This document shows positions 1 to 52,956 of a stretch of DNA of 64,000 nucleotides, piece after piece (within the stretch, counting starts at the first letter, position 1; every line of letters begins with the position of its first letter). Below the pieces are notes generated by a model that had not been told where the DNA came from, searched no databases, and saw only the letters and a list, made by a program, of their open reading frames with translations. Origin of the DNA: Roseateles sp. (GTDB taxonomy: Bacteria > Pseudomonadota > Gammaproteobacteria > Burkholderiales > Burkholderiaceae_C); contig JAFALK010000028.1 in the NCBI GenBank assembly GCA_019234295.1, positions 1 through 64,000 on the forward strand, given 5' to 3'. Position numbers and translations under genes: made by a program.

Positions 1-231
1 GGCGGTGGCGGCTACGGCGGCGGCGGCAGCCGTTCCGGTGGCGGCGGCGACGGCGGCGGCGGCGGCCGTTCGGGTGGCGGCGGCTACGGTGGTGGTGGTG
101 GCGGCGGCTACGGCGGCGGCGGTGGCCGCTCGGGTGGCGGCGGCTCCGGCGGCGGCGGCGGCCGTTCGGGTGGCGGCGGCTACGGCGGCGGCGGTGGCGG
201 CAGCTACGGCGGTGGCCGTTCCGGCGGTTAC
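1..231 (+). repeat. GGC-rich imperfect tandem repeat coding for Gly-rich segments
   Basis: The stretch is built of imperfect repeats of about 27-33 bp, mixing ggcggcggc runs with tacggc and cgttcgggt units. It encodes the Gly-Tyr-Arg-Ser tail of the cut-off protein. Being repetitive, it is prone to length change and assembly error. Confidence 0.7.
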
Positions 232-23883: not shown

Positions 23884-24405
23884 TTAGATCACGAAGCCTT
23901 TGTCCGACTCGTGCAGCGGCTCGCGGCACATGCAGCTGGCACCTCCTCCATCGCAGACCATGCGTGCCGGCAGCGCGCCGGCCGCCTCGCCCGCGCCCCG
24001 GGGCGGTCGGGTCCACGGCAGGGGGGCGTGCTGACAGAGGCCGTCGGCCGCCACGGGCACCGCGCAAATCGCGCCGCGCAGCGGCGGCGGCTCCTGCGCA
24101 AGGGGCCACAGCAAGACGAAATGACCAGCGGATCTGGCGTTCATCTCGACCAGGAAGCAGGATGCAGGAAGCAGGAAGCAGGATGCCGGCGAGGCCAGCG
24201 AGGGCAGCGAGACCTTCAGCTTGGAGAGCAAGGATGAGGCCGACTCCAGCTTCGCCGCGTCACAGCAGCGCGCCGGGTCGTCGAGCCCAACAGGGACGTC
24301 CTGCGCCGAATGGCTGTGCAGGCTGTGCAGGCTGTGCAGGCTGTGCAGGCTGTGCAGGCTGAGGAACGGCTGCGCAAGCGTAGGCGTCATCATTGCGGCA
24401 GGCAT
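23884..24405 (-). CDS. Hypothetical protein carrying two tandem-repeat tracts
   Basis: I do not recognise this gene. An open frame of 173 codons starts at ATG 24405 (AAGAAAG-type ribosome site five bases upstream) and ends TAA at 23884. Third positions are strongly G/C, as in real genes here, most clearly in the last 80 codons. The product has a (Leu-His-Ser)5 run near residues 16-31, a heptamer-coded Pro-Ala-Ser-Cys-Phe-Leu repeat around residue 75-87, and a Cys-containing C-terminus (VCDGGGASCMCREPL). Both tracts are tandem repeats at DNA level. The 7-bp one is not a multiple of three, so copy change would shift the frame. It could instead be a decaying gene. Confidence 0.5.
   Translation of the reverse strand: MPAAMMTPTLAQPFLSLHSLHSLHSLHSLHSHSAQDVPVGLDDPARCCDAAKLESASSLLSKLKVSLPSLASPASCFLLPASCFLVEMNARSAGHFVLLWPLAQEPPPLRGAICAVPVAADGLCQHAPLPWTRPPRGAGEAAGALPARMVCDGGGASCMCREPLHESDKGFVI
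24152..24186 (-). repeat. 7-bp tandem repeat (AGGAAGC/AGGATGC x5) inside a coding frame
   Basis: Five heptamers in the order AGGAAGC, AGGATGC, AGGAAGC, AGGAAGC, AGGATGC. The unit length is not divisible by three, so slippage would switch the reading frame of the surrounding hypothetical gene. Confidence 0.9.
24313..24360 (-). repeat. 9-bp tandem repeat (gctgtgcag x5)
   Basis: Five perfect copies from 24313 to 24357 plus three bases. Read on the minus strand they encode Leu-His-Ser repeats in the hypothetical protein. There are no spacers, so this is not a CRISPR. Confidence 0.92.
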
Positions 24406-24775
24406 GCGGACTTTCTTTGCTGCCTGCACTTGCGCTCCAGCATGCGGCGGATGCGCAACAGCGCGAGCGAGCGCGACCCCCACCGCGCGTGAACAAATCC
24501 CCAGCGCCCCGGCTCGCATGCAGCACCCCCGGCCAAGCCCCATGCATCGACAGACCCGGCATGCCTAGAGTTGCGTCACCACGTCGCCAAGCACCCGCGC
24601 AGCGATCGATGGATACAAGTCAGCAGGGAGAAACGTCGCAGCCACGGGCCCGCAGTGCCGTCGCTCGCAGCGTTTGGATTGCAGTTGCAGTCGCAGTACA
24701 TGCCCGTCAGGCGGTGGGTCTCGGTCGGAAACGACCGGCCGGCGTCGACGCTTGCTACCGAATTCCCGGACGACG
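24406..24775. other. 370-bp intergenic region with a GAAA-tetraloop hairpin
   Basis: No convincing gene. It separates the minus-strand hypothetical from the plus-strand HD-GYP-like gene and should hold both promoters. One clear structure is CGGTCG (24722-24727), GAAA, CGACCG (24732-24737), a perfect 6-bp stem capped by a GNRA tetraloop, 38 bases before the next ATG. The known c-di-GMP riboswitch architecture could not be matched around it. Confidence 0.45.
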
Positions 24776-25918
24776 ATGGAACTCCTGTCACTGACCTCTG
24801 TGGCCTCGCAGATGCGCAAGGGCGCCCCCCTGCCGTGGAATGTGCGCACGGCCTCGGGCCAGCTGCTACTCGCGCGCGGCCAGATCCTCGCCACTGACGA
24901 CGACATCGATGCCCTGCTTGAGCGCGGCATGTTCGTCGACGCTGCGGAGCTGCGCGTGCGCGGCGGAGATGTGGCGCCGCTGTACCGCAACGTCTTCGAA
25001 CGATGGGCGGCCATGGAGCGCAGGCTCGCCACCTTGCTGCGGTCGCGCCCCCAGGATCTGGGCAGTAGGATCACCGAGCTGGCGTTGGGCGTGGGAGAGC
25101 TCGCCGACGAGCATGCGGACGAGCTCATCTTCGCAGTCGTTCAGTACGACCACGGACGCTTCTCGGCCTATGGCGTGGCCCATGCGATGCACGTGGCCGC
25201 CGTGTGCGCCCTGCTCGCGCGGCGCCTGTCGAACACCGAGGAGCAGCGCCAGAGCCTCCTGTGCGCGGCGCTGACGATGAACATGTCCATCGTCGAGCTC
25301 CAGGGCCAGTTGGCCTCGCGCGGCGGCAAGCCGACGACCGCCGAGCGGGCGGCCATCGAGCGCCATCCGATCGCAGCCGCCGAGGCCCTGCGCAGCCTCG
25401 GTGTGACCGACGAGCTCTGGCTGCGTCTGGTTGCCGAACATCACGAGCAGCCGGACGGCGATGGGTACCCGAGCGGCATCGAAGCGCAGTGCGAGCTGGT
25501 CAACCTGCTGCACCTGGTCGATGTCTTCACGGCCAAGTACGCGGCCCGCGCCGACCGCGCCGGCCTGCCCGCGCGCATCGCCGCGCAGCAGCTCTTCATC
25601 CAGTCCGGCAGGCATCCGGTGGCGGCATTGCTGATCAAGGAATTCGGCATGTACCCGCCCGGCTGCATCGTCAAGCTGAGCAACGGCGAGACCGCCGTGG
25701 TCGTGCGGCGCGGCGCGCAGGTCAACCAGCCGATTGCCGCCGTCTTTATCAACCGAAACGGCCTGCCCGTCTCGCCGCCGTTGCGCCGCGACACCTCTCG
25801 CAGCGATTGCGCCGTGGTCATGAGCCTGAGCCCTGAGGGCATCCTCGTTCAGCACGCGGTCGAGCAGCTGTATGAGAGCGCGCAGCCGGGCGGCGTGGCA
25901 GCCCGGTGGTCGAACTGA
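24776..25918 (+). CDS. HD-GYP-like domain protein with degenerate HD motif
   Basis: 380 residues. The centre resembles HD-GYP c-di-GMP phosphodiesterases: a first His in VAHAMHVAAV (~138-147), ERHP near 200 and HHEQPDGDGYP near 222-232, so HHE and GYP are kept. The defining HD pair, expected in a LLHDIGK-like segment, is replaced by LTMNMSIVELQ, so at least two metal ligands are missing and catalysis is doubtful. A ~120-residue N-terminal region and a C-terminal beta-rich segment (~300-350) flank it. It may act as a c-di-GMP or protein-binding module. A diguanylate cyclase gene follows after 79 bp. Confidence 0.78.
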   Translation: MELLSLTSVASQMRKGAPLPWNVRTASGQLLLARGQILATDDDIDALLERGMFVDAAELRVRGGDVAPLYRNVFERWAAMERRLATLLRSRPQDLGSRITELALGVGELADEHADELIFAVVQYDHGRFSAYGVAHAMHVAAVCALLARRLSNTEEQRQSLLCAALTMNMSIVELQGQLASRGGKPTTAERAAIERHPIAAAEALRSLGVTDELWLRLVAEHHEQPDGDGYPSGIEAQCELVNLLHLVDVFTAKYAARADRAGLPARIAAQQLFIQSGRHPVAALLIKEFGMYPPGCIVKLSNGETAVVVRRGAQVNQPIAAVFINRNGLPVSPPLRRDTSRSDCAVVMSLSPEGILVQHAVEQLYESAQPGGVAARWSN

Positions 25919-25997
25919 GGAGGGTGGAGGAACTGCAGCCGCGGAAGCGGGAATAATCGCCAGAGTACGGTTGGGTCATCGCCGGGAAGAACGCGCC

Positions 25998-27191
25998 ATG
26001 CTCACGAACTCTTCGATCCTGCTGGAGGCGGCCAGTGCCAGTTGCGCACTGGCCGCCATCATGTTCTGGAGCGGGGCGCGCTTCATGAAGCTGAGCGCGC
26101 GCGCCACGCTCAACTGGGCGGTGGCCAACGCGCTGTTCTCGGTCGGCACGCTGCTGACGGTGCGGCGCGCCGATTCCGGCCAGATTCCCCTGTATGTCCT
26201 CGCGGACGCGCTTGAGCTGATCGGCTTCGTGTTCGTGCACAGGGGCCTGGGCATATTCTTTCAGTCGCCGCCACCGAAGCTCGAACACCCGCTCGTGATC
26301 GGCATTGCCGCACTGTCAATGGCATATGCGTACAGCACGGGCCATGCCACGATCCGGCTGGCGATCTACTGTGTAGTGGCCAGCTGGATTCTCGGGCGCG
26401 CCGGTCTGGTTGCCTTGAAGGGCGCCCGGCAGGAGTTCGGCTGGCCCGCGGCATCGGCCAGTGCGTTGCCCATCATCGCGGCCTGCATCGCGGAGTTGCT
26501 GCGGGGTGCGATCGGCGTCTTCGAGCCCGCTTCGGCCACCTCGGACTCGCTGCGCGACACCACCGTCAATCTCTGGATGGATTGGGCGAATCTGATCCTC
26601 TCGCTGGCACTCAACATCTCCTTGGCGGGTCTGGTCGTCGCACGGCTGGTCGCTCGGATCCGGGACCTGACGCTGACGGATCCGCTGACCGGTGTCATGA
26701 ACCGTCGCGCCGTCGAAGATTTTCTGGCACGCCAGATGGCCGAGCAGCGACGGCATGGAAGCCCCGTGTCCGTGGTGTACCTGGATCTCGACCATTTCAA
26801 GGCATTGAACGACCTCTACGGCCACGCCGCGGGAGATGCGGCCATCAACCATGCGGTTGACAAGGTGCGGACGCAGCTGCGGGCCGGCGATGCACTCGGG
26901 CGGCACGGCGGCGAGGAGTTCCTCGTCGTCATGCTCAACACGGATGCGCAAGGGGCCCAGGCTGCCGCCGAGCGCATGCGATCGGCCGTGGCCACCGCGC
27001 CGCTCGTCTGGCAGGAGCGATTGCTGCGCCTGAGCGCCAGCTTCGGCGTCGCCACCGCAAGCGCCTCGGAGGGGCTGACACCGGAGGAACTGCTGCATCG
27101 CGCGGACAAGGCCATGTACGCGGCGAAGGAGAGCGGCCGCAATAGGGTGGTCGTGGCGGCAAGAGCGTCGGGGGCCGAAGGGGCCCGATGA
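25998..27191 (+). CDS. Membrane-bound diguanylate cyclase (GGDEF)
   Basis: 397 residues. The first ~215 form six or seven hydrophobic helices in the style of an MHYT/7TM-like sensor that I cannot name. A linker leads to a complete GGDEF domain: LTLTDPLTGVMNRRAVEDF, YLDLDHFKALNDLYGH, and the active-site signature GGEEF at 304-308. It should make c-di-GMP from two GTP. No RxxD inhibitory site is evident upstream of the signature. It is preceded by an HD-GYP-like gene, suggesting a paired signalling unit. ATG 25998 is preferred because the first helix follows directly. Confidence 0.88.
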   Translation: MLTNSSILLEAASASCALAAIMFWSGARFMKLSARATLNWAVANALFSVGTLLTVRRADSGQIPLYVLADALELIGFVFVHRGLGIFFQSPPPKLEHPLVIGIAALSMAYAYSTGHATIRLAIYCVVASWILGRAGLVALKGARQEFGWPAASASALPIIAACIAELLRGAIGVFEPASATSDSLRDTTVNLWMDWANLILSLALNISLAGLVVARLVARIRDLTLTDPLTGVMNRRAVEDFLARQMAEQRRHGSPVSVVYLDLDHFKALNDLYGHAAGDAAINHAVDKVRTQLRAGDALGRHGGEEFLVVMLNTDAQGAQAAAERMRSAVATAPLVWQERLLRLSASFGVATASASEGLTPEELLHRADKAMYAAKESGRNRVVVAARASGAEGAR

Positions 27192-27253
27192 GCTTGGACG
27201 GCACCAAGGCAGATGAGACGGCTCGCCTCGGACGGGACAAATTCGACGTCATT

Positions 27254-27275
27254 CATGTACGACTTTCCGTACATG
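27254..27275. promoter_or_regulatory. Palindrome with GTAC cores upstream of the yefM remnant, relic TA operator
   Basis: CATGTACG (27254-27261) and CGTACATG (27268-27275) with six bases between, ending 21 bp before the yefM ATG. YefM-YoeB operators in E. coli consist of palindromes with TGTACA cores, so this is probably the surviving operator of the module. Confidence 0.55.
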
Positions 27276-27296
27276 CAAAGACGTGCCGAGGACGCC

Positions 27297-27542
27297 ATGA
27301 CTTGCACCGCAGCTCGCGCAAGCCTAGCCACCACGATGGATCTGAGCTGCAACGACCACGAGCCCCCGATCATCACGCGCGATCATCTCGCGCAATGGGG
27401 AGCAGCAAGCGGTAGTGACGCTATCGCTCAAAGACTTCAAGGCGCTCGAAGACTTCAATGCGCTCAAAGAAGCCGCCTATCTCTTGCGCAAACCGAGCAA
27501 CTGAACGCCGGCCGAGGGAAAGCCCAAGAGCTGGGGGGTTGA
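27297..27542 (+). pseudogene. yefM: Antitoxin yefM, frameshifted and internally deleted
   Basis: Three pieces of a YefM/Phd-type antitoxin lie in different frames. From ATG 27297 the product aligns without gaps to the E. coli N-terminal half over 25 residues (AR..L..TM......DH.P...ITR). A 13-bp tandem duplication (27368-27380 and 27381-27393) then shifts the frame, after which NGEQQAVVTLSL and EAAYLLRKPSN appear. This second piece carries an 18-bp in-frame duplication (27430-27447 and 27448-27465). A deletion of roughly 30 bp plus a shift precedes the last piece, LNAGRGKAQEL, ending at TGA 27540-27542. The gene cannot yield a working antitoxin. Confidence 0.85.
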
Positions 27543-27793
27543 AGCTGATCTTTGCGGATGCAGCCTCGGAAGACTACCTGTACTGGCAACAACAAGACAG
27601 GCGAATGCTCGAGCGCATCAACAAGCTCATTCGCGAAGCGCAGTGCGAACCGCTGGTTGGTATCGGAAACCTGGGGTCTTAGAAGCACGCGTTGGCCGGA
27701 TCTTGGTCTCGGCGCATGACCGACGAACACTGGGTGGATGGCAAGATCGACGGCGACGCATTGCTCCTTGCGAAGCTTCGCTCTCACTACTGA
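27539..27793 (+). pseudogene. yoeB: Toxin yoeB, inactivated by an amber codon and catalytic losses
   Basis: The frame spans 84 codons, exactly the length of E. coli YoeB mRNA interferase, and aligns along its whole length: KLIFADAASEDYLYWQQQD at the start, KHALAGSWSRRMTDEH in the middle and RSHY at the end. The start codon is TTG instead of ATG. An in-frame TAG at 27680-27682 stands where YoeB has Leu48 (one base from TTG). Of the known catalytic residues, Glu46 is now Gly and Arg65 is Trp, while His83 and Tyr84 remain. It overlaps the end of yefM by 4 bp, as in intact modules. Toxin loss and antitoxin decay fit each other. Confidence 0.9.
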
Positions 27794-27852
27794 GACCTCG
27801 GGCGCGGAGTCTCCTCGACACACCAGTGGCGGGCCTTGCGCCGACGCGCTCG

Positions 27853-28545
27853 CTAGATCACCAGCCGATACCCCACCGCGGTCTCCGTCAGCAGATGCCG
27901 CGGCCGTGCTGGCTCCGTCTCGAGCTTCTGGCGCAGATTGCCCATGTAGACGCGCAGGTAGTGGCTGTCGTCGGCATGGGAGGGTCCCCAGACCGCCTTG
28001 AGCAGTTGACGGTGGGTGAGCACCTTGCCGGCCTCGGCGATCAGGTAGGTGAGAAGTCGGTACTCGGTGGGCGTGAGGTGCACGGGCTCGCCGCCGCGCA
28101 ACACGCGCCGGGCAGCCAGGTCGACCTCGATCTCGCCGAAACGGAAGACGCTCTGGGCGGCGCCGACCGCGGCCGCAGCAAGATGGCGGCGATGCGCGAC
28201 GCGCACGCGCGCCATCAGCTCGCCCACGCCGAAGGGCTTGACGAGGTAGTCGTCGGCGCCCGCGTCGAGTGCGGCGATCTTGTCGGCCTCGTCGGTGCGA
28301 GCCGACAGCACGATGACGGGCGCGCGCGACCAAGTGCGCAGGTCCTTGAGATAGTCAACGCCATCGCCATCGGGCAGGCCCAGGTCCAGGATGATGAGCT
28401 CGGGCCGGCGCGTGCCTGCGTCGATCAGGCCCTGCCTCACCGTCTCGGTCTCGAAGACCTGCCAGCCCTCGGACTCCAGCGCCAGGCGCACGAAGCGGCG
28501 GATGCTGGGTTCGTCCTCGACGATCAGTGCGGTCGGTTCATTCAT
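27853..28545 (-). CDS. kdpE: Response regulator KdpE
   Basis: 230 residues, OmpR/PhoB class. Receiver domain 1-120 with acidic pair Glu10/Asp11, phospho-acceptor Asp54 (LIILDLGLPDG) and Lys in YLVKPFG; a C-terminal winged helix with TPTEYRLLTYLI and HYLRVYMGNLRQKLE. With KdpD it switches on the Kdp K+ pump at low potassium or high osmolarity. ATG 28545 overlaps the kdpD stop by 8 bp. It is the last gene of the operon, 59 bp from the end of the yoeB relic on the other strand. Confidence 0.95.
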   Translation of the reverse strand: MNEPTALIVEDEPSIRRFVRLALESEGWQVFETETVRQGLIDAGTRRPELIILDLGLPDGDGVDYLKDLRTWSRAPVIVLSARTDEADKIAALDAGADDYLVKPFGVGELMARVRVAHRRHLAAAAVGAAQSVFRFGEIEVDLAARRVLRGGEPVHLTPTEYRLLTYLIAEAGKVLTHRQLLKAVWGPSHADDSHYLRVYMGNLRQKLETEPARPRHLLTETAVGYRLVI

Positions 28546-31234
28546 CAGCGTTCTCGGCCTCGGACAAATCGGGCGGCGTGCCCAGTGGCAGGAGGATGTG
28601 GAAGACCGCGCCGCCGCCCTCCGCGTTCGCGGCGTGGATGCTGCCGCCGTGCGCCTCGACGATGGCGCGGCAGATCGCCAGGCCCAGGCCCACGCCCGGC
28701 GTGCTGGACTCCCGTTCGCCGCGCGTGAACTTGTCGAACAGGGTTTCGACGCGCTGCGGCGGCAGGCCCGGGCCATTGTCGGCGACGCTCAGCTCCAGCT
28801 GCGCGCCCGCCACGCGGCCCGAGATCCTGACGCAGCTGCCCGGGGGCGTGTACTTGGCCGCGTTCTCTAGCAGGTTGGCGAGCACGCGCTCCATCAGCGC
28901 TGCATCCAGTTGAACAAGGGGCAGGTCGGCCGGCAGGTCGAGCTCCACATGGTGGTGGGCGAGCAGCGGCTCCATCGCGCGCAGCGCGCTGCCCACGACC
29001 TCCTCCAGGGGTTGCCACTGCAGATTCGGACGCACCGTGCCGCTTTGCAGGCGCGCCATGTCGAGCAGGTTGTTGACCATGGCGGTGATGCGCTGCGCCT
29101 GCTGGCTCAGCGCCTGAGAGAGGTCGCGCGCGTTGCCGGGCAGGTCGGGAAGCGCGGCCAGGGTCTGCGCCGTGCCGTAGACCGCGGCCAGGGGCGTGCG
29201 CAGATCGTGCGAGAGCGCAGAGAGCAAGGAGTTGCGCAACCGCTCCGATTCAATCTGCACCAGGGCCTGCTGCGCGACCTCGACGTAATGCACGCGCTCC
29301 AGGGCCTGGGCGATGATGCGGGCATAGGTCTCCAGCTGAGCGCGCAGCTCGGGCTGCATCACGCTACGGCTGGAACTCGGCTTCAGGGCCAGCACACCGC
29401 GAGTTCGCATGGCGGCGACCAGTGGCAGGTAGTACCAAGGGCTGCCGGGCAGGGTGTCGGTGGTGAGGCCGGCGGGCCGGCCATGGTCGAAGGCCCAGCG
29501 TGCTGCGGCCGAGTCGGAGACGTCGGCGCCGGAGTCGTGCGGCGAGGGCTGCAGCCGGTCCTGAACGTCCAGCGTGTAGAGCAGGGCCCGGCCATGCACC
29601 TCGCGAGCCAACACCTGCTCGGAGACTTCGACGACCTGCTCCGTCAGCAACGCGCTACCGAGGTCGCTGGTCAGCTCGAACAGGGCGCGCGAGCGAGTCT
29701 CCCTCTCTGCCGCCACCCGGGCCTCGTAGCGCAGGCCGGCGGTCAGTTGGCCCGTGACCAGACCCACGACGAGCATGACTGCAAAGGTCAGCAGGTACTG
29801 CACGTCGGAGACGGCGAAGCTGAGCTGGGGCGGCACGAAGAAGAAGTCGAACAGCCCCACGCTCACGAAACTGGCGAGCACAGCCGGACCACGCCCAAGC
29901 CGCAGCGCCACGCCCACCACGCACAGCAGGAAAAGCATGACGATGTTGGCGAGGTCGAAGTAGCGCGCCAGCGGTTCGCAGACGGCCGCCGTGGCGGCGC
30001 AAGCCAGGACCGCCATCGCGTGGCGGCGCAGCTGAGCGGGCCAGGGGCGTTCGGGCTCGGACGCGAGGGCTTCGGCCCGGCTGGCGGCGGCCTGCGGCAG
30101 GACCGTGGCGACCGCGATCAAGTCAAGCTCCGGCGCCGCCGCGGCGAGCTTCTGCGTCAACGCACGTGTCGCCCACCAGCGGCGCGAGCGGCCACGGCCC
30201 AGCACGAGCTTGGAGAGGTTGTGCTCGCGCGCGTACGCCGCCAACGCCGCGGCCACATCCTGGTGCTGTAGCACGGCCGTAGCCGCACCGAGCTCATGGG
30301 CGCCGCGCACGACGCGCAGGATGCGCTCGCGCTGCGCATCGGGCAGGCGCTGCAGGGCCGGCGTCTCCACGTAGACCGCGTGCCAGCTCACGCCGAGCTG
30401 CTGTGCCAGCTGCGCGGCACTGCGCACCACGCTTTCGGCCGCGGGGGTGGGACCGACGGAGCAGAGGATGGCCGCGTCGGTCTTCCAGACCTCGGCGATG
30501 CGCTTGGTGCTGCGCCAGACCTGCACGTCCTCCTCTACGCGGTCGGCCGTGCGGCGCAGGGCCAGCTCGCGCAGGGCCATGAGGTTGCCCTTGCGGAAGA
30601 AGTTGCTGGCCGCGCGCTCGGCCGCCGGACCCATGTAGACCTTGCCAGCCTTCAACCGTGCGAGCAGCTCGTCGGCCGGCGTGTCCACCAACACGACTTC
30701 GTCCGCGCGGTCAAAGAAGGTGTCGGGCAGGGTCTCCTGCACGCGCACGCCGGTGATGCCGCCGACGATATCGTTGAGGCTCTCCAGGTGCTGGACGTTG
30801 AGCGTGGTGTAGACGCTGATGCCGTTGGCGAGCAGCTCCTCCACGTCCTGCCAGCGCTTGGGGTGGCGAGAGCCCAGCACATTGGAATGCGCGAGCTCGT
30901 CGACGAGGATGAGGGCCGGCTTGCGCGCCAGCGCAGCGTCCAGGTCGAACTCGGGCAGCGACTTGCCGCGGTAGTCCACGTTCTTCAGCGGCAGCTGGGG
31001 CAGCCCGGCGGCCACGCCTTCGGTCTCGCTGCGGCCATGCGTGACAACCACGCCGGCCAGCACGTCCACGCCCTCGGCCTGCAGTTTGCGGGCAGCCTGG
31101 AGCATGGCGTAGGTCTTGCCCACGCCGGCCGAGGAGCCGAAGTAGATGCGCAACCGGCCGCGCGAAGCGGCCTGTTCTTCCTCGCGCAGCCGGGCAAGCA
31201 GGGCGTCGGGGTCCGGACGTGTGCCGTCGATCAT
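28538..31234 (-). CDS. kdpD: Potassium sensor histidine kinase KdpD
   Basis: 898 residues, close to the E. coli length. N-terminal KdpD domain with Walker A-like GSSAGVGKT and Walker B-like LILVDELAHSN, a USP domain (~250-370) with the basic LGRGRSRRW patch, four closely spaced helices around 400-500, a GAF-like segment, the dimerisation helix with phospho-His676 in SALSHDLRTP (E. coli His673) and an ATPase domain (NLLENAAKYTPPGS, DNGPGLPP, GVGLGLAICRAIVE). It phosphorylates KdpE. 38 bp separate it from kdpC. Nothing is missing. Confidence 0.95.
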   Translation of the reverse strand: MIDGTRPDPDALLARLREEEQAASRGRLRIYFGSSAGVGKTYAMLQAARKLQAEGVDVLAGVVVTHGRSETEGVAAGLPQLPLKNVDYRGKSLPEFDLDAALARKPALILVDELAHSNVLGSRHPKRWQDVEELLANGISVYTTLNVQHLESLNDIVGGITGVRVQETLPDTFFDRADEVVLVDTPADELLARLKAGKVYMGPAAERAASNFFRKGNLMALRELALRRTADRVEEDVQVWRSTKRIAEVWKTDAAILCSVGPTPAAESVVRSAAQLAQQLGVSWHAVYVETPALQRLPDAQRERILRVVRGAHELGAATAVLQHQDVAAALAAYAREHNLSKLVLGRGRSRRWWATRALTQKLAAAAPELDLIAVATVLPQAAASRAEALASEPERPWPAQLRRHAMAVLACAATAAVCEPLARYFDLANIVMLFLLCVVGVALRLGRGPAVLASFVSVGLFDFFFVPPQLSFAVSDVQYLLTFAVMLVVGLVTGQLTAGLRYEARVAAERETRSRALFELTSDLGSALLTEQVVEVSEQVLAREVHGRALLYTLDVQDRLQPSPHDSGADVSDSAAARWAFDHGRPAGLTTDTLPGSPWYYLPLVAAMRTRGVLALKPSSSRSVMQPELRAQLETYARIIAQALERVHYVEVAQQALVQIESERLRNSLLSALSHDLRTPLAAVYGTAQTLAALPDLPGNARDLSQALSQQAQRITAMVNNLLDMARLQSGTVRPNLQWQPLEEVVGSALRAMEPLLAHHHVELDLPADLPLVQLDAALMERVLANLLENAAKYTPPGSCVRISGRVAGAQLELSVADNGPGLPPQRVETLFDKFTRGERESSTPGVGLGLAICRAIVEAHGGSIHAANAEGGGAVFHILLPLGTPPDLSEAENADE

Positions 31235-31272
31235 TGCGCCATTGTCTTACGTCCTCGCAAGGGCACGGCCCT

Positions 31273-31851
31273 TCACGACCGGGTCTTGTCGAGCGCGAGA
31301 TTGAGCTTGAGCACGTTCACGCGCGGCTCGCCGAGCACGGCAAGATCGCGGCCCTCGGTGTTCTCGTTGATGAGGGCTTGCACCTTGGCGACGGGCAGGC
31401 CGCGCACGCGCGCCACGCGAGCTGCCTGGTAGCGGGCCGCCGCCAACGTGATGTGCGGGTCCAACCCGCTGGCCGAGGCCGTGACGAGGTCGACGGGAAC
31501 GGACTGCGTGTTGCCGGGGTCGGCCGCACGCAGGGCCTCGACGCGGGCTTTGACCGCGTCCGTCAGCGCCGGGTTCAGCGGGCCCACGTTGGAGCCCGAC
31601 GAGCCCGTGGCATTCGTGCCCATGGGCGCCGTGGCCGAGGGCCGGCCCCAGAAGTACTTGGGCTCGGTGAAGGTCTGGCCGATCAGCTCGGAGCCGACCG
31701 CCTTGCCGCCAACCTCGACGAGCGAGCCGGCCGCCTGCTTCGGGAACAGGCTCTGGCCGACACCCGTGACGGCGATCGGGTAGAGCAGGCCGGTGAGGGC
31801 TGAAAGCAGCACGAAGAGAACGAGCGCGGGGCGCAGATAAGTCTTGAACAC
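31273..31851 (-). CDS. kdpC: K(+)-transporting ATPase subunit KdpC
   Basis: 192 residues. One N-terminal membrane helix (about residues 8-30, [21 protein letters not shown]) and a periplasmic domain with the conserved [23 protein letters not shown] and ASGLDPHI segments. KdpC is the inner-membrane subunit that stabilises KdpFABC and raises K+ affinity. It lies 11 bp downstream of kdpB in the order F-A-B-C-D-E. Confidence 0.95.
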
Positions 31852-41695: not shown

Positions 41696-43000
41696 ATGCA
41701 GTGGAAGAACAAGCCCTCGGCGATCCTGATCGGACTACTGCTGATCCATGTGATCGCGCACATCGATCGCAACATGCTGCTGAGCTTCTCACCACAAATC
41801 ACGAAGGAGCTGGGCCTGAACAACCAGCAGTACGGCTTCCTGACCGGCGCCGTCTGGGTGTTGAGTTTCGGGCTCATGGCGCTCTTCATGGGCTCGCTGG
41901 CGGACCGCTTCAGCCGCACCCGCGTGATGGCATTCGGCGTGCTCGTCTGGAGCGCCTGCACCGCCGCCTCGGGCTATGCGCACAACTTCGAGCAGATGGT
42001 GGCAGCGCGTTTCCTCGTCGCCACGGGCGAGGCGGCGCTGGTGCCGGCCGCCATCTCGCTGCTGAGCGAGCTGTTCACGGCGCAGCGGCGCAGCACGGCG
42101 GTGGGCGTGTTCTTCATCGGCATCCCGCTGGGCATCGGCCTGGCCTTCGTGATCGCGGGCACACTGGGCACGACACTGGGCTGGCGCCACACCTTCCTCG
42201 CCCTGGGCACGGTGGGCGCGCTCATCACGCTGCCTCTGGTGTGGCTCGAGGACGAGCGCGCGGGGGCAGAAAGTGCTGAGCGCGGTGCACATTTTGTCCT
42301 GCAGGTACGTGCGGTGTGGGCAGCCTTGCAGGGCAGCCGCCCGCTGCGCCAGACCATCATCGGCTTCGTGCTGGTGCACTTCGCCTTCGCCGGCCTGAGC
42401 TTCGTGCAGCTGTGGCTGGTGCGCGAGCGCAGCATGGACGGCGCAAGCATGGCCAGGCAGATGGGCGCCCTGCAGATCCTGTTCGGCACGCTAGGGGCGG
42501 TGCTCGGTGGCGTCGCCAGCGACCGCCTCTCACGGCGCTTCGCAGGCGGCCACGCCACGGTGCTGGCCTTGATGGTGCTCGTCTGCGCGCCGCTGATGCT
42601 GGCCTATCGCTTTGCGCCCCCGGGCTCGGCGCTGTTCTACGTCGGCATGTGTGCAGGCTTCTTCCTGCCGCTGGCCTGCTACGGCCCCTCCAACGCCTTG
42701 ATCCAGGCGCTCACGCCGACCAGCATGCGCTCCACCATCACGGGCGCCACGATGATGCTGATCAACGTGCTCGCCATCGCGCTGGGCAACCTGGCCGTGG
42801 GCGCGCTCAGCGACCGGCTCGCCGCTGGCGGCTCCGCCGCGGCCTTGAGCACCGCTCTCGTCGCTACCGATGTGCTCGTGGGCCTGGCCCTGTGGTTCTA
42901 CTGGCGCGCCGCCAACGCCAACGCCAGCGCTGCCCTGCCCCTGGACGCAGGCCCTGCGCGCCTTGCGTCGATCAATAGGTCATCAGTAGGTCATCAGTAG
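41696..43000 (+). CDS. MFS transporter (organic-anion type), copy 1
   Basis: 434 residues with twelve predicted helices. Signature A GSLADRFSRTRVM follows helix 2 and helix 4 has ARFLVATGEAALVPA, as in the anion:cation/aromatic acid-type carriers. It should import (or export) the organic acid handled by the upstream BKACE operon. The last codons, coding Arg-Ser-Ser-Val-Gly-His-Gln, and the stop TAG lie inside an 11-bp tandem repeat shared with the end of the convergent dioxygenase gene, leaving only 4 bp between the two stops. Confidence 0.87.
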   Translation: MQWKNKPSAILIGLLLIHVIAHIDRNMLLSFSPQITKELGLNNQQYGFLTGAVWVLSFGLMALFMGSLADRFSRTRVMAFGVLVWSACTAASGYAHNFEQMVAARFLVATGEAALVPAAISLLSELFTAQRRSTAVGVFFIGIPLGIGLAFVIAGTLGTTLGWRHTFLALGTVGALITLPLVWLEDERAGAESAERGAHFVLQVRAVWAALQGSRPLRQTIIGFVLVHFAFAGLSFVQLWLVRERSMDGASMARQMGALQILFGTLGAVLGGVASDRLSRRFAGGHATVLALMVLVCAPLMLAYRFAPPGSALFYVGMCAGFFLPLACYGPSNALIQALTPTSMRSTITGATMMLINVLAIALGNLAVGALSDRLAAGGSAAALSTALVATDVLVGLALWFYWRAANANASAALPLDAGPARLASINRSSVGHQ

Positions 43001-43014
43001 GTCATCAGTAGGTC
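42977..43014. repeat. 11-bp tandem repeat (aggtcatcagt x3.5) over two convergent stop codons
   Basis: Perfect copies at 42977-42987, 42988-42998 and 42999-43009 plus aggtc. It contains the TAG of the MFS gene and the TGA of the dioxygenase gene. Eleven is not a multiple of three, so copy change would alter the MFS C-terminus, while each unit restores a stop for the dioxygenase. Confidence 0.92.
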
Positions 43015-50913: not shown

Positions 50914-52956
50914 GTGAGACAAGCCCGCCATCTATTCGCCCCGTTCGCCCCGTTCGCCCCGTTCGCCCCGTTCGCCCTGAGCCTGCTGTGCGCCGCGCTG
51001 CCCACGCAGGCCGCCGAGACGGCGCTGAGCCCGGACCTCAAGCTCAAGCTCGACAGCACGCTGACCCTGGGCACCATCGTCCGCGCCGAAGCGCCCGACC
51101 CCGCGGAATACGCCTTCATCCCGTCCACCACGGTCCCGGGCGCCACGCCGGGTCTGCTGACCGGCCAGACCGGCGGATCGGACCTGAACTTCCGCCGCGG
51201 CCGGCCCGTCTCGACCGTGGTGCAGGGCATGTTCGACCTCAGCCTGCGCTCGCACGACATGGGCCTGATGCTGCGCACTGCGGCCTGGCACGACTTCACG
51301 CTGGGGCAGCAATCGGCGGCCTTCGGCAATTACGCCAACGGCTACACGCCCGGCGCCACACTCTCGGACCAGGGCATGCTGAGCGCCGCGCGTTTCAGCG
51401 GCGTGATGCTGCGCGACGTCTATGCCTTCGCCGGCTTCGATCTCGGCGAACAGCGCCGGCTCGAGCTGCGCGTGGGCCGCCAGGTGCTCGACGGCAACGG
51501 CAGCCAAGGCCAGCTGAGCGGCTCCTGGGGCGGTGCGCGCCTGATCACCGGCGGCATCGCATCGGCGCTCAACCCCAACGACTACGCGGCTCAGTTCCGC
51601 CCGGGCGCGCTACCCGAAGAAGCCCGCGTGCCGGTGGGCATGCTGAGCCTGCACCTGAAGCAAGGCGCGCAATGGAGCCTCGACGCCTTCCTGCCCTGGG
51701 AGACGCGCCAGACCGTGCTGCCGGGCTGCGGAACCTTCTTCGACATCATCTCGGTGGCCCCGACCGGCTGCAATCTGGGCTCGGCCATTCCCTACACCTT
51801 CGCCGGCACGCCGCTTTCCACCATCAACTCGCTCACCGAGCACAGCCTGCTCGCCTCGGGCCTGTACCTGCAGCGCCTGCCCGACCAGCTCCCTTCGGGC
51901 AGCGGCCAGTTCGGCCTCGCCGGCCACTATGTGTTCACGGCCCTTCGCACCGAGCTCGCGGCCTATGCGATGAACACGCAGACCATCACGCCCTTCTTCC
52001 GCATGCGCGTGGACGACGTGCGTGGCGCGCCGGTCAGCGTGGCCCTGCCGGGCCAGGCAGGCCTCGTGTTCTCGGCGCTGCAGCGGCTCAACCCCTGGGT
52101 GTCGCAGCTGCCCGCCGCCTACGCCGCGGCCTACACGCCGCCGCCGACCGGCCAGGGCAACGGCCTGCAGTACGGCGTGACGGTGCCGAAGTCCGTGCGC
52201 CTGTACGGCCTGTCCTTCAACACGCAGGCCGCGCCCACGACCCGCTTCTACGGCGAGCTGGCCTACCGCCCCAACCAGCCCCTCTCCTACAACCTCAACG
52301 ACCTGCTCAACGCGATGCTGCTGCGCACGCCCACCTCCCTGCTCGCCGAGCAGCGGCAGCTGCTGACCGTGCCGGCGGGCGGCTATCTCGACGCCTTCGA
52401 TCGCATGAAGGTCACGACTGCCAGTCTGGGCGTGAACCAGGCCTGGCGCCAGGTCCTGGGCGCGCAGGCCGTGCAGTTGACGGCCGAGATCGGCGCCAGC
52501 CATGTGAACGGCCTGCCCGATCCCCTTCAGATGCGCTATGGCCGCGCCTTCGCCTACGGCTCCGCGCCCTTCGAGGACGCCCGCACCGGCACGCTCAGCA
52601 ACTGCCCGCAACCGGCCAATGGCGCAGGCCTGTACTTCGCACCGGGCAAGACTTGCACCAGCGACGGCTTCATCACCTCCACCGCCTGGGGCTGGCGCCT
52701 GGCCGCCGGGGCCATGTATCCGAATGCCGTGGCCGGTGTCACGCTGCAGCCCTCGCTGCTGCTGGCCTACGACGCGCACGGCTATGCCTACGACGGCAGC
52801 TTCTCCCAAGGCCGCCGCATGATCCGCCCGGCCTTGCGTGCCAGTTGGTCCGGCGGCTGGTGGGCCGACATCGCCTACACGGGCATCGGCGGCGGCCGCT
52901 ACAACCTGCTGGCCGATCGCAGCAATGTGGCCCTGTCGCTCGGCGTCAAATTCTGA
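50914..52956 (+). CDS. DUF1302 outer-membrane channel-like protein, island copy 2
   Basis: 680 residues. GTG 50914 is preceded by a strong AGGAGGA at 50904-50910. The signal peptide contains (Phe-Ala-Pro)4-5 coded by a 9-bp tandem repeat, before [13 protein letters not shown]. The barrel shares the landmarks of copy 1 at 38.2 kb ([51 protein letters not shown]) and ends LGVKF. Both copies hold two conserved Cys pairs. It is followed after 17 bp by a chemoreceptor gene, suggesting channel and sensor for the same compound. Confidence 0.88.
50935..50979 (+). repeat. 9-bp tandem repeat (ttcgccccg x4 plus variant) in a signal peptide
   Basis: Perfect copies at 50935, 50944, 50953 and 50962, then ttcgccctg at 50971. 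They encode Phe-Ala-Pro repeats at the front of the hydrophobic core of the channel's signal peptide. Confidence 0.92.

What the first reader, a model, noticed from the sequence alone, without database searches (positions are those of the whole stretch)
27192..27852. yefM-yoeB module inactivated by tandem duplications, an amber codon and catalytic-site loss
All parts of a YefM-YoeB system can be traced: a GTAC-core palindrome operator, an antitoxin split by a 13-bp tandem duplication (27368-27393), an 18-bp duplication and a deletion, and an 84-codon toxin with TAG at Leu48, Glu46 to Gly and Arg65 to Trp. Toxin catalytic losses would have removed the need for the antitoxin, and duplications then accumulated. 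It records slippage-driven decay in this genome and lies between a diguanylate cyclase gene and the kdp operon.
Basis: partly seen in the sequence, partly recalled or inferred. Interest (0 to 1): 0.58.

Follow-up and report, generated by a model that had tools for sequence, protein, structure and literature searches.

The report
Dead YefM-YoeB toxin-antitoxin gene pair
Between two ordinary genes of a Burkholderiales-like bacterium lie the broken remains of a common bacterial toxin-antitoxin gene pair; the damage is real and easy to read, but such relics are ordinary.

Summary
Window 27254-27793 is a yefM-yoeB module: the toxin frame matches the YoeB family over its whole length despite a TAG, two pieces of YefM lie upstream in different frames, and the operator has the family's two GTAC cores 12 bp apart. 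The named lesions are present and absent from 13 of 13 aligned relatives: +13 and +18 tandem duplications, a 31-bp deletion, TAG at codon 48, E46G, R65W. Two more: the YefM start position reads GAG, and the -10-like hexamer, TACAAT in many relatives, reads TACGAC. Of 21 residues invariant in 56 open relatives 5 have changed (leave-one-out maximum 2), though in two clusters. The order 'toxin first' cannot be read from this locus; relatives favour it as a rule (4 loci with broken toxin and open antitoxin, no clear reverse case, one unresolved). 'Slippage-driven decay in this genome' rests on one locus. No second genome of the genus is held, and none of 80 kdp loci carries the module in the flanks held, so its arrival cannot be dated. 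Ordinary pseudogene; low interest.

The parts
27254..27275 (+). YefM-type operator: two GTAC cores 12 bp centre to centre; overlaps the former -10-like element
   Evidence: (GTAC pair in 50 of 53 relatives, spacing 8 in 49 of those 50); published geometry PMC7730913, passages
27258..27263 (+). former -10-like hexamer, reads TACGAC (TACAAT, TACAGT or TACATT in 46 of 50 relatives)
   Evidence: a consensus scan of 27100-27950 finds no promoter-like site, but 0.2 are expected in shuffles, so this says little
27288..27290 (+). position of the YefM start codon in relatives; reads GAG here (in-frame ATG at 27297)
27288..27380 (+). yefM relic, N-terminal part (residues 1-31), original frame
27368..27393 (+). 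13-bp tandem duplication (frameshift)
   Evidence: absent from 13 of 13 relatives aligned
27394..27501 (+). yefM relic, middle part, shifted frame, containing the 18-bp duplication
27425..27460 (+). 18-bp tandem duplication (in frame, +6 residues)
   Evidence: absent from 13 of 13 relatives aligned
27498..27500 (+). joint of a 31-bp deletion in yefM (CAA at the joint)
   Evidence: hand count
27498..27542 (+). yefM relic, last 14 codons and stop, back in original frame, stop overlapping the toxin start
27539..27793 (+). yoeB relic with TAG at 27680-27682; E46G, R65W and, at other invariant residues, K44N, V67D, Y68G

Best explanation
A yefM-yoeB module of the kind scattered through Burkholderiales settled between a GGDEF gene and kdpE, lost its function and has been decaying without selection. 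Shown: both genes, the YefM start position and the -10-like element differ from working relatives in ways that break them. Inferred: no working toxin is made (truncation after codon 47, loss of Glu46 and Arg65), so no antitoxin is needed and further lesions are neutral. Likely but not shown: the toxin failed before, or together with, the antitoxin.
For: Full-length family match with a stop inside. Lesions absent from 13 of 13 aligned relatives. 5 of 21 residues invariant among 56 open relatives changed; leave-one-out control 0 in 47, 1 in 6, 2 in 3. Third-position share of differences 0.54 on average (23 window pairs, largest 0.61) against 0.67 on average in 954 intact pairs of similar distance. 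End branch 0.77 against a median of 0.1. Neighbouring GGDEF, kdpE and kdpD frames are open, which speaks against a bad assembly.
Against: Operator geometry, H83, Y84 and Arg59 are kept. Some controls overlap: intact pairs go down to a third-position share of 0.49, and at sites with one nucleotide in all 56 relatives the window has 6 private changes where one relative has 5 (mean 0.5); one open relative (L234) has a longer end branch, 0.85. The toxin changes sit in two clusters (codons 44-48 and 65-68), so they may be fewer events than changes. The overlap of antitoxin stop and toxin start is kept and the antitoxin region is one open frame (27213-27542), because +13, +18 and -31 cancel; but the same shifted frame is open in 21 of 53 relatives too.
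Confidence: 0.95

Rival explanations
1. Sequencing or assembly error: the real locus holds a working module.
For: The genome is a draft (97 contigs, 86.7% complete). No reads or second assembly could be examined.
Against: Three indels, a stop, and substitutions at five invariant toxin residues, the YefM start and the -10-like element sit in 540 bp, while the flanking frames (439, 307 and 898 aa) are open.
Confidence: 0.03
2. The remnant still works as a regulator: the YefM N-terminal part made from the open frame 27297-27542 binds the kept operator, or acts as an anti-addiction fragment.
For: Operator geometry kept; N-terminal residues up to ITR kept in frame; frame open to the old stop.
Against: About 28 YefM residues precede the frameshift; start position and -10-like element changed; an open shifted frame is common, 21 of 53 relatives. 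Most of the C-terminal half is out of frame.
Confidence: 0.03
3. The antitoxin was damaged first (for example by the mild in-frame 18-bp duplication), and toxin-killing mutations were then selected.
For: The order cannot be read from one sequence. Locus L248 (toxin match from residue 16, no YefM match) is unresolved and could be a case of antitoxin loss first.
Against: Deleting the antitoxin of yefM-yoeB failed in P. putida (PMC7280312, passages), so a working toxin beside a dead antitoxin should be short-lived; among relatives a broken toxin with an open antitoxin occurs in 4 of 17 examined loci and no clear reverse case was seen.
Confidence: 0.2

Closest known systems
yefM-yoeB type II toxin-antitoxin systems (PF02604/NF008499 with PF06769/TIGR02116)
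   Same: Gene order, stop/start overlap, paired GTAC cores 12 bp apart over the -10 region, 84-residue toxin.
   Different: Both genes are broken here; -10-like element and antitoxin start changed.
Decayed chromosomal TA loci (toxin gene missing or truncated in Pseudomonas homologues, PMC7280312 Table 1: yefM-yoeB 1 of 44, xre-res 24 of 46; passages seen)
   Same: A TA locus that lost its toxin on a chromosome.
   Different: Here the antitoxin is broken too, by two tandem duplications and a deletion.
Relics among relatives: L206 (G361), L205 (G190), L240 (G704), L176 (G189), L247 (G620), L200 (G285)
   Same: Frameshift, stop or catalytic change in yoeB; L206 also lacks part of the YefM C-terminus, L200 part of the N-terminal half and has Tyr at position 83.
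   Different: Other lesions, other places: separate events.

Membership tests
YefM-YoeB module (by descent) | YoeB-family toxin sequence over the whole length | tested here: met
   with the TAG read as X
YefM-YoeB module (by descent) | YefM antitoxin directly upstream, overlapping the toxin start | tested here: met
   As broken pieces only; neither piece reaches a family cut-off alone
YefM-YoeB module (by descent) | Two TGTACA-like palindromes 12 bp centre to centre over the promoter | tested here: met
   Geometry met, cores TGTACG and CGTACA; published feature
Functional YefM-YoeB system | Open reading frames for both proteins | tested here: not met
   TAG in the toxin; frameshift in the antitoxin
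Functional YefM-YoeB system | Catalytic residues Glu46, Arg65, His83, Tyr84 | tested here: not met
   E46G, R65W; H83, Y84 kept; roles from PMC3814384 passages, where one figure legend names Arg59, kept here, in place of Arg65
Functional YefM-YoeB system | Toxin arrests growth and antitoxin relieves it | not testable with these tools
   needs a bench test

The most novel reading that the evidence does not exclude
The relic keeps a use: the open 81-codon frame 27297-27542, made of a YefM N-terminal piece, a frameshifted middle and the original tail, is expressed and binds the kept paired GTAC operator as a toxin-less regulator or as a decoy for related antitoxins.
Probability: 0.03. Interest if true: 0.5.

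Novelty: new member of a known kind. Interest (0 to 1): 0.12.

Why it matters
It is a clear example of a chromosomal toxin-antitoxin pair dying after it settled. With the broken relatives found here it adds a little to the case that the toxin usually fails first. It opens no new mechanism.

Tried and rejected
0 of 80 carry a YefM or YoeB match at E 1e-3 within the flanks held, and none a match to the window's GGDEF gene next to kdpE; L122, L131 and L140 hold a GGDEF gene about 2 to 6 kb away. Some of these loci end soon after kdpE (for instance L121, L127), and in L138 no kdpE was found, so the 0 of 80 is an upper claim. The genus search returned 1 genome, the window's own, so the insertion cannot be dated. 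The GGDEF gene's best-scoring match outside the genome is 33% identical (100 genomes), so it is no anchor.

An integron-cassette origin was considered: 6 of 56 relatives have cassette-like core sites on both sides, the window has none. Plasmid and phage sources: the best plasmid match is 71% protein identity (Aquabacterium olei), by DNA 13 plasmid records match, the best covering 46% of the query; the best phage match is 41%. No recent donor. No Rfam match in the window at gathering scores, no tRNA, no promoter-like or terminator-like site in 27100-27950.

One search gave no match for the toxin because I started the frame at 27541 instead of 27539; corrected. The alignment misplaces the region of the 18-bp duplication and the deletion, so these were counted by hand.

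Rows dropped or chosen: the 56 toxins are those open over 84 codons among 57 candidate loci; L176 (stop at codon 82) fell out. The 13 relatives include L176. The YefM genes are the 53 of 56 with 78-92 codons and a stop near the toxin start. The 17 broken or odd loci were picked by me from the match lists because their matches were short, split or had stops. Of the 17: 4 have a broken toxin and an antitoxin matched without stop over at least 79 residues (L205, L240, L176, L247); 1 has both damaged (L206); 6 are toxin fragments with no YefM match (L207, L241, L243, L244, L245, L246); L242 is a fragment beside a whole module; L209 is cut by a contig end; L210 is a divergent pair with both parts matched; L211 is the same locus as L191; L248 has a toxin match from residue 16 on and no YefM match (unresolved; it might be a counter-case); L208 gave no match. 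Two open toxins without a whole YefM are themselves altered: L191 has ACA at the first aligned codon and a different N-terminus, L200 has ACG there and Tyr at position 83.

Full report
What is there. The stretch 27192-27852 lies between the stop of a GGDEF (diguanylate cyclase) gene at 27191 and the 3' end of kdpE, which is on the other strand and ends at 27853; kdpD follows. It holds, on the + strand, an operator (27254-27275), pieces of a yefM gene (27288-27542) and a yoeB gene (27539-27793). The toxin is the strong evidence: with its TAG read as X it passes the curated cut-offs of TIGR02116 (65.1 bits against 51.8) and PF06769 (76.6 against 27) and aligns without gaps to E. coli YoeB 2a6q, residues 1-84, E 5.2e-20. 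It is the only YoeB match in the window's genome, which is 86.7% complete. The antitoxin pieces are weak one by one but match YefM residues 2-32 and 28-61 in two frames, in order, directly upstream.

Operator. It is the family's pair: two GTAC cores with 8 bases between them, 12 bp centre to centre. Published yefM-yoeB and axe-txe operators have two TGTACA cores 12 bp apart, the long one covering the -10 box in E. coli (PMC7730913, passages seen). Of 53 relatives with a YefM gene of usual length, 50 have a GTAC pair within 70 nt upstream of the start, with spacing 8 in 49 of the 50. GTAC-N8-GTAC occurs once in the 64-kb window. An 8/8 inverted repeat with a gap of at most 10 came up in 27 of 2000 base shuffles of the 98-nt stretch, so the family geometry is the better argument. 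The hexamer after the first G reads TACAAT, TACAGT or TACATT in 46 of those 50 relatives and TACGAC here. A consensus scan finds no promoter-like site in 27100-27950, but only 0.2 are expected in shuffles and the relatives were not scanned. I infer that the promoter is weakened or lost.

Lesions. Compared with 13 relatives (one of them, L176, has a stop at toxin codon 82), the window alone has: GAG where they have the YefM start codon (27288), although an in-frame ATG follows at 27297; the 13-bp tandem duplication (27368-27393), which shifts the frame; the 18-bp tandem duplication (27425-27460), in frame; and a deletion of 31 bp with its joint at 27498-27500 (hand count). The indels sum to zero, so the last 14 codons of yefM are back in frame, the old stop still overlaps the toxin start, and the region reads as one open frame (27213-27542). 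That is not surprising: the same shifted frame is open in 21 of 53 relatives over codons 31-72. An extra codon at 27403-27408 is shared with relative L188 and is not a lesion. In the toxin: TAG at codon 48, E46G, R65W, and K44N, V67D and Y68G at residues invariant in 56 open relatives. The changes sit in two clusters, codons 44-48 and 65-68, so E46G and the TAG may belong to one event. Arg59, His83 and Tyr84 are kept. In E. coli YoeB Glu46 is the general base, His83 the general acid, and Arg65 stabilises the transition state (a figure legend of the same paper names Arg59 for this); the paper also offers a reason why Glu46 mutants keep compromised activity (PMC3814384, passages seen). So the TAG and R65W, not E46G alone, make the case for a dead toxin.

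Decay or noise? Of 21 residues invariant in 56 open YoeB proteins of the same family and order, 5 have changed in the window; in the leave-one-out control the count was 0 for 47 proteins, 1 for 6 and 2 for 3. At nucleotide level the gap is smaller: 6 private changes at 59 invariant sites against a leave-one-out maximum of 5 and mean of 0.5. The third-codon-position share of differences averages 0.54 for 23 window pairs (largest 0.61) against 0.67 for 954 intact pairs with 55-80 differences (smallest 0.49). In the protein tree the window's end branch is 0.77 changes per column against a median of 0.1; one open relative, L234, is longer at 0.85, and the window's place is unresolved. Indels, a stop and substitutions in 540 bp with open neighbours on both sides do not look like assembly error, though the genome is a draft of 97 contigs and no reads were available.

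Order of events. Relatives give an indirect test. From two searches (74 of 399 genomes of the family with a match, own genome included; 82 of 399 of the order, likewise) I picked 17 broken or odd loci. Four have a broken toxin and an antitoxin matched without stop over at least 79 residues; one (L206) has both damaged; none is a clear case of a whole toxin with a broken antitoxin, but L248 is unresolved. Among 56 open toxins 53 have a YefM gene of usual length and L197 a slightly longer one; the two exceptions, L191 and L200, have altered toxins themselves, L200 with Tyr in place of His83. In P. putida the yefM-yoeB antitoxin could not be deleted, and truncated or missing toxin genes are reported in up to about half of the homologues of some TA systems (PMC7280312: Discussion read, passages). 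Toxin first is the likelier order in general, and hence here, but that is an inference.

Origin. YoeB relatives are scattered over the family and order; the best KdpD relatives with names are Burkholderiales, so I place the genome there. GC over 27251-27750 is 0.576 against 0.626-0.742 in the other windows of 24001-31500, which fits an acquired module or AT-biased decay. Six of 56 relatives show integron-cassette-like core sites on both sides of the pair, and YoeB/YefM is listed among integron-borne systems (PMC7370490, one passage); the window shows no such site.

Verdict. Observation confirmed; interpretation right on inactivation, unproven on order, too wide on 'slippage-driven decay in this genome'. 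It is an ordinary pseudogene pair of a well-known system.

Noticed in passing
L172, L173, L189, L216, L220, L229 (relatives): GTTRRRY about 75-80 nt before the YefM start and RYYYAAC beginning about 3-8 nt after the toxin stop codon in 6 of 56 relatives: integron-cassette geometry around yefM-yoeB. The attC core motifs are recalled, not modelled.
   Followed up: partly
L200 (G285:C142): Independent relic: part of the YefM N-terminal half lost, toxin codon 1 reads ACG and position 83 is Tyr instead of His.
   Followed up: partly
L242 (G464:C71) 753-881: Fragment of a YoeB C-terminal half about 200 nt upstream of a whole yefM-yoeB pair, perhaps the remnant of an older copy.
   Followed up: no
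window 24312-24361, 50935-50977, 42971-43014: Short perfect or near-perfect tandem arrays (units GGCTGTGCA x5.6, TTCGCCCCG x4.8, ATCAGTAGGTC x4.0).
   Followed up: no
window 1-227: GGC-rich repeat array at the window edge, units of 36, 60 and 96 bases, perhaps a glycine-rich protein tail.
   Followed up: no
G000:C22, C79, C9, C92 (L201-L204): Four other Phd/YefM-family antitoxin matches over the family cut-off elsewhere in the genome; their partners were not examined.
   Followed up: no
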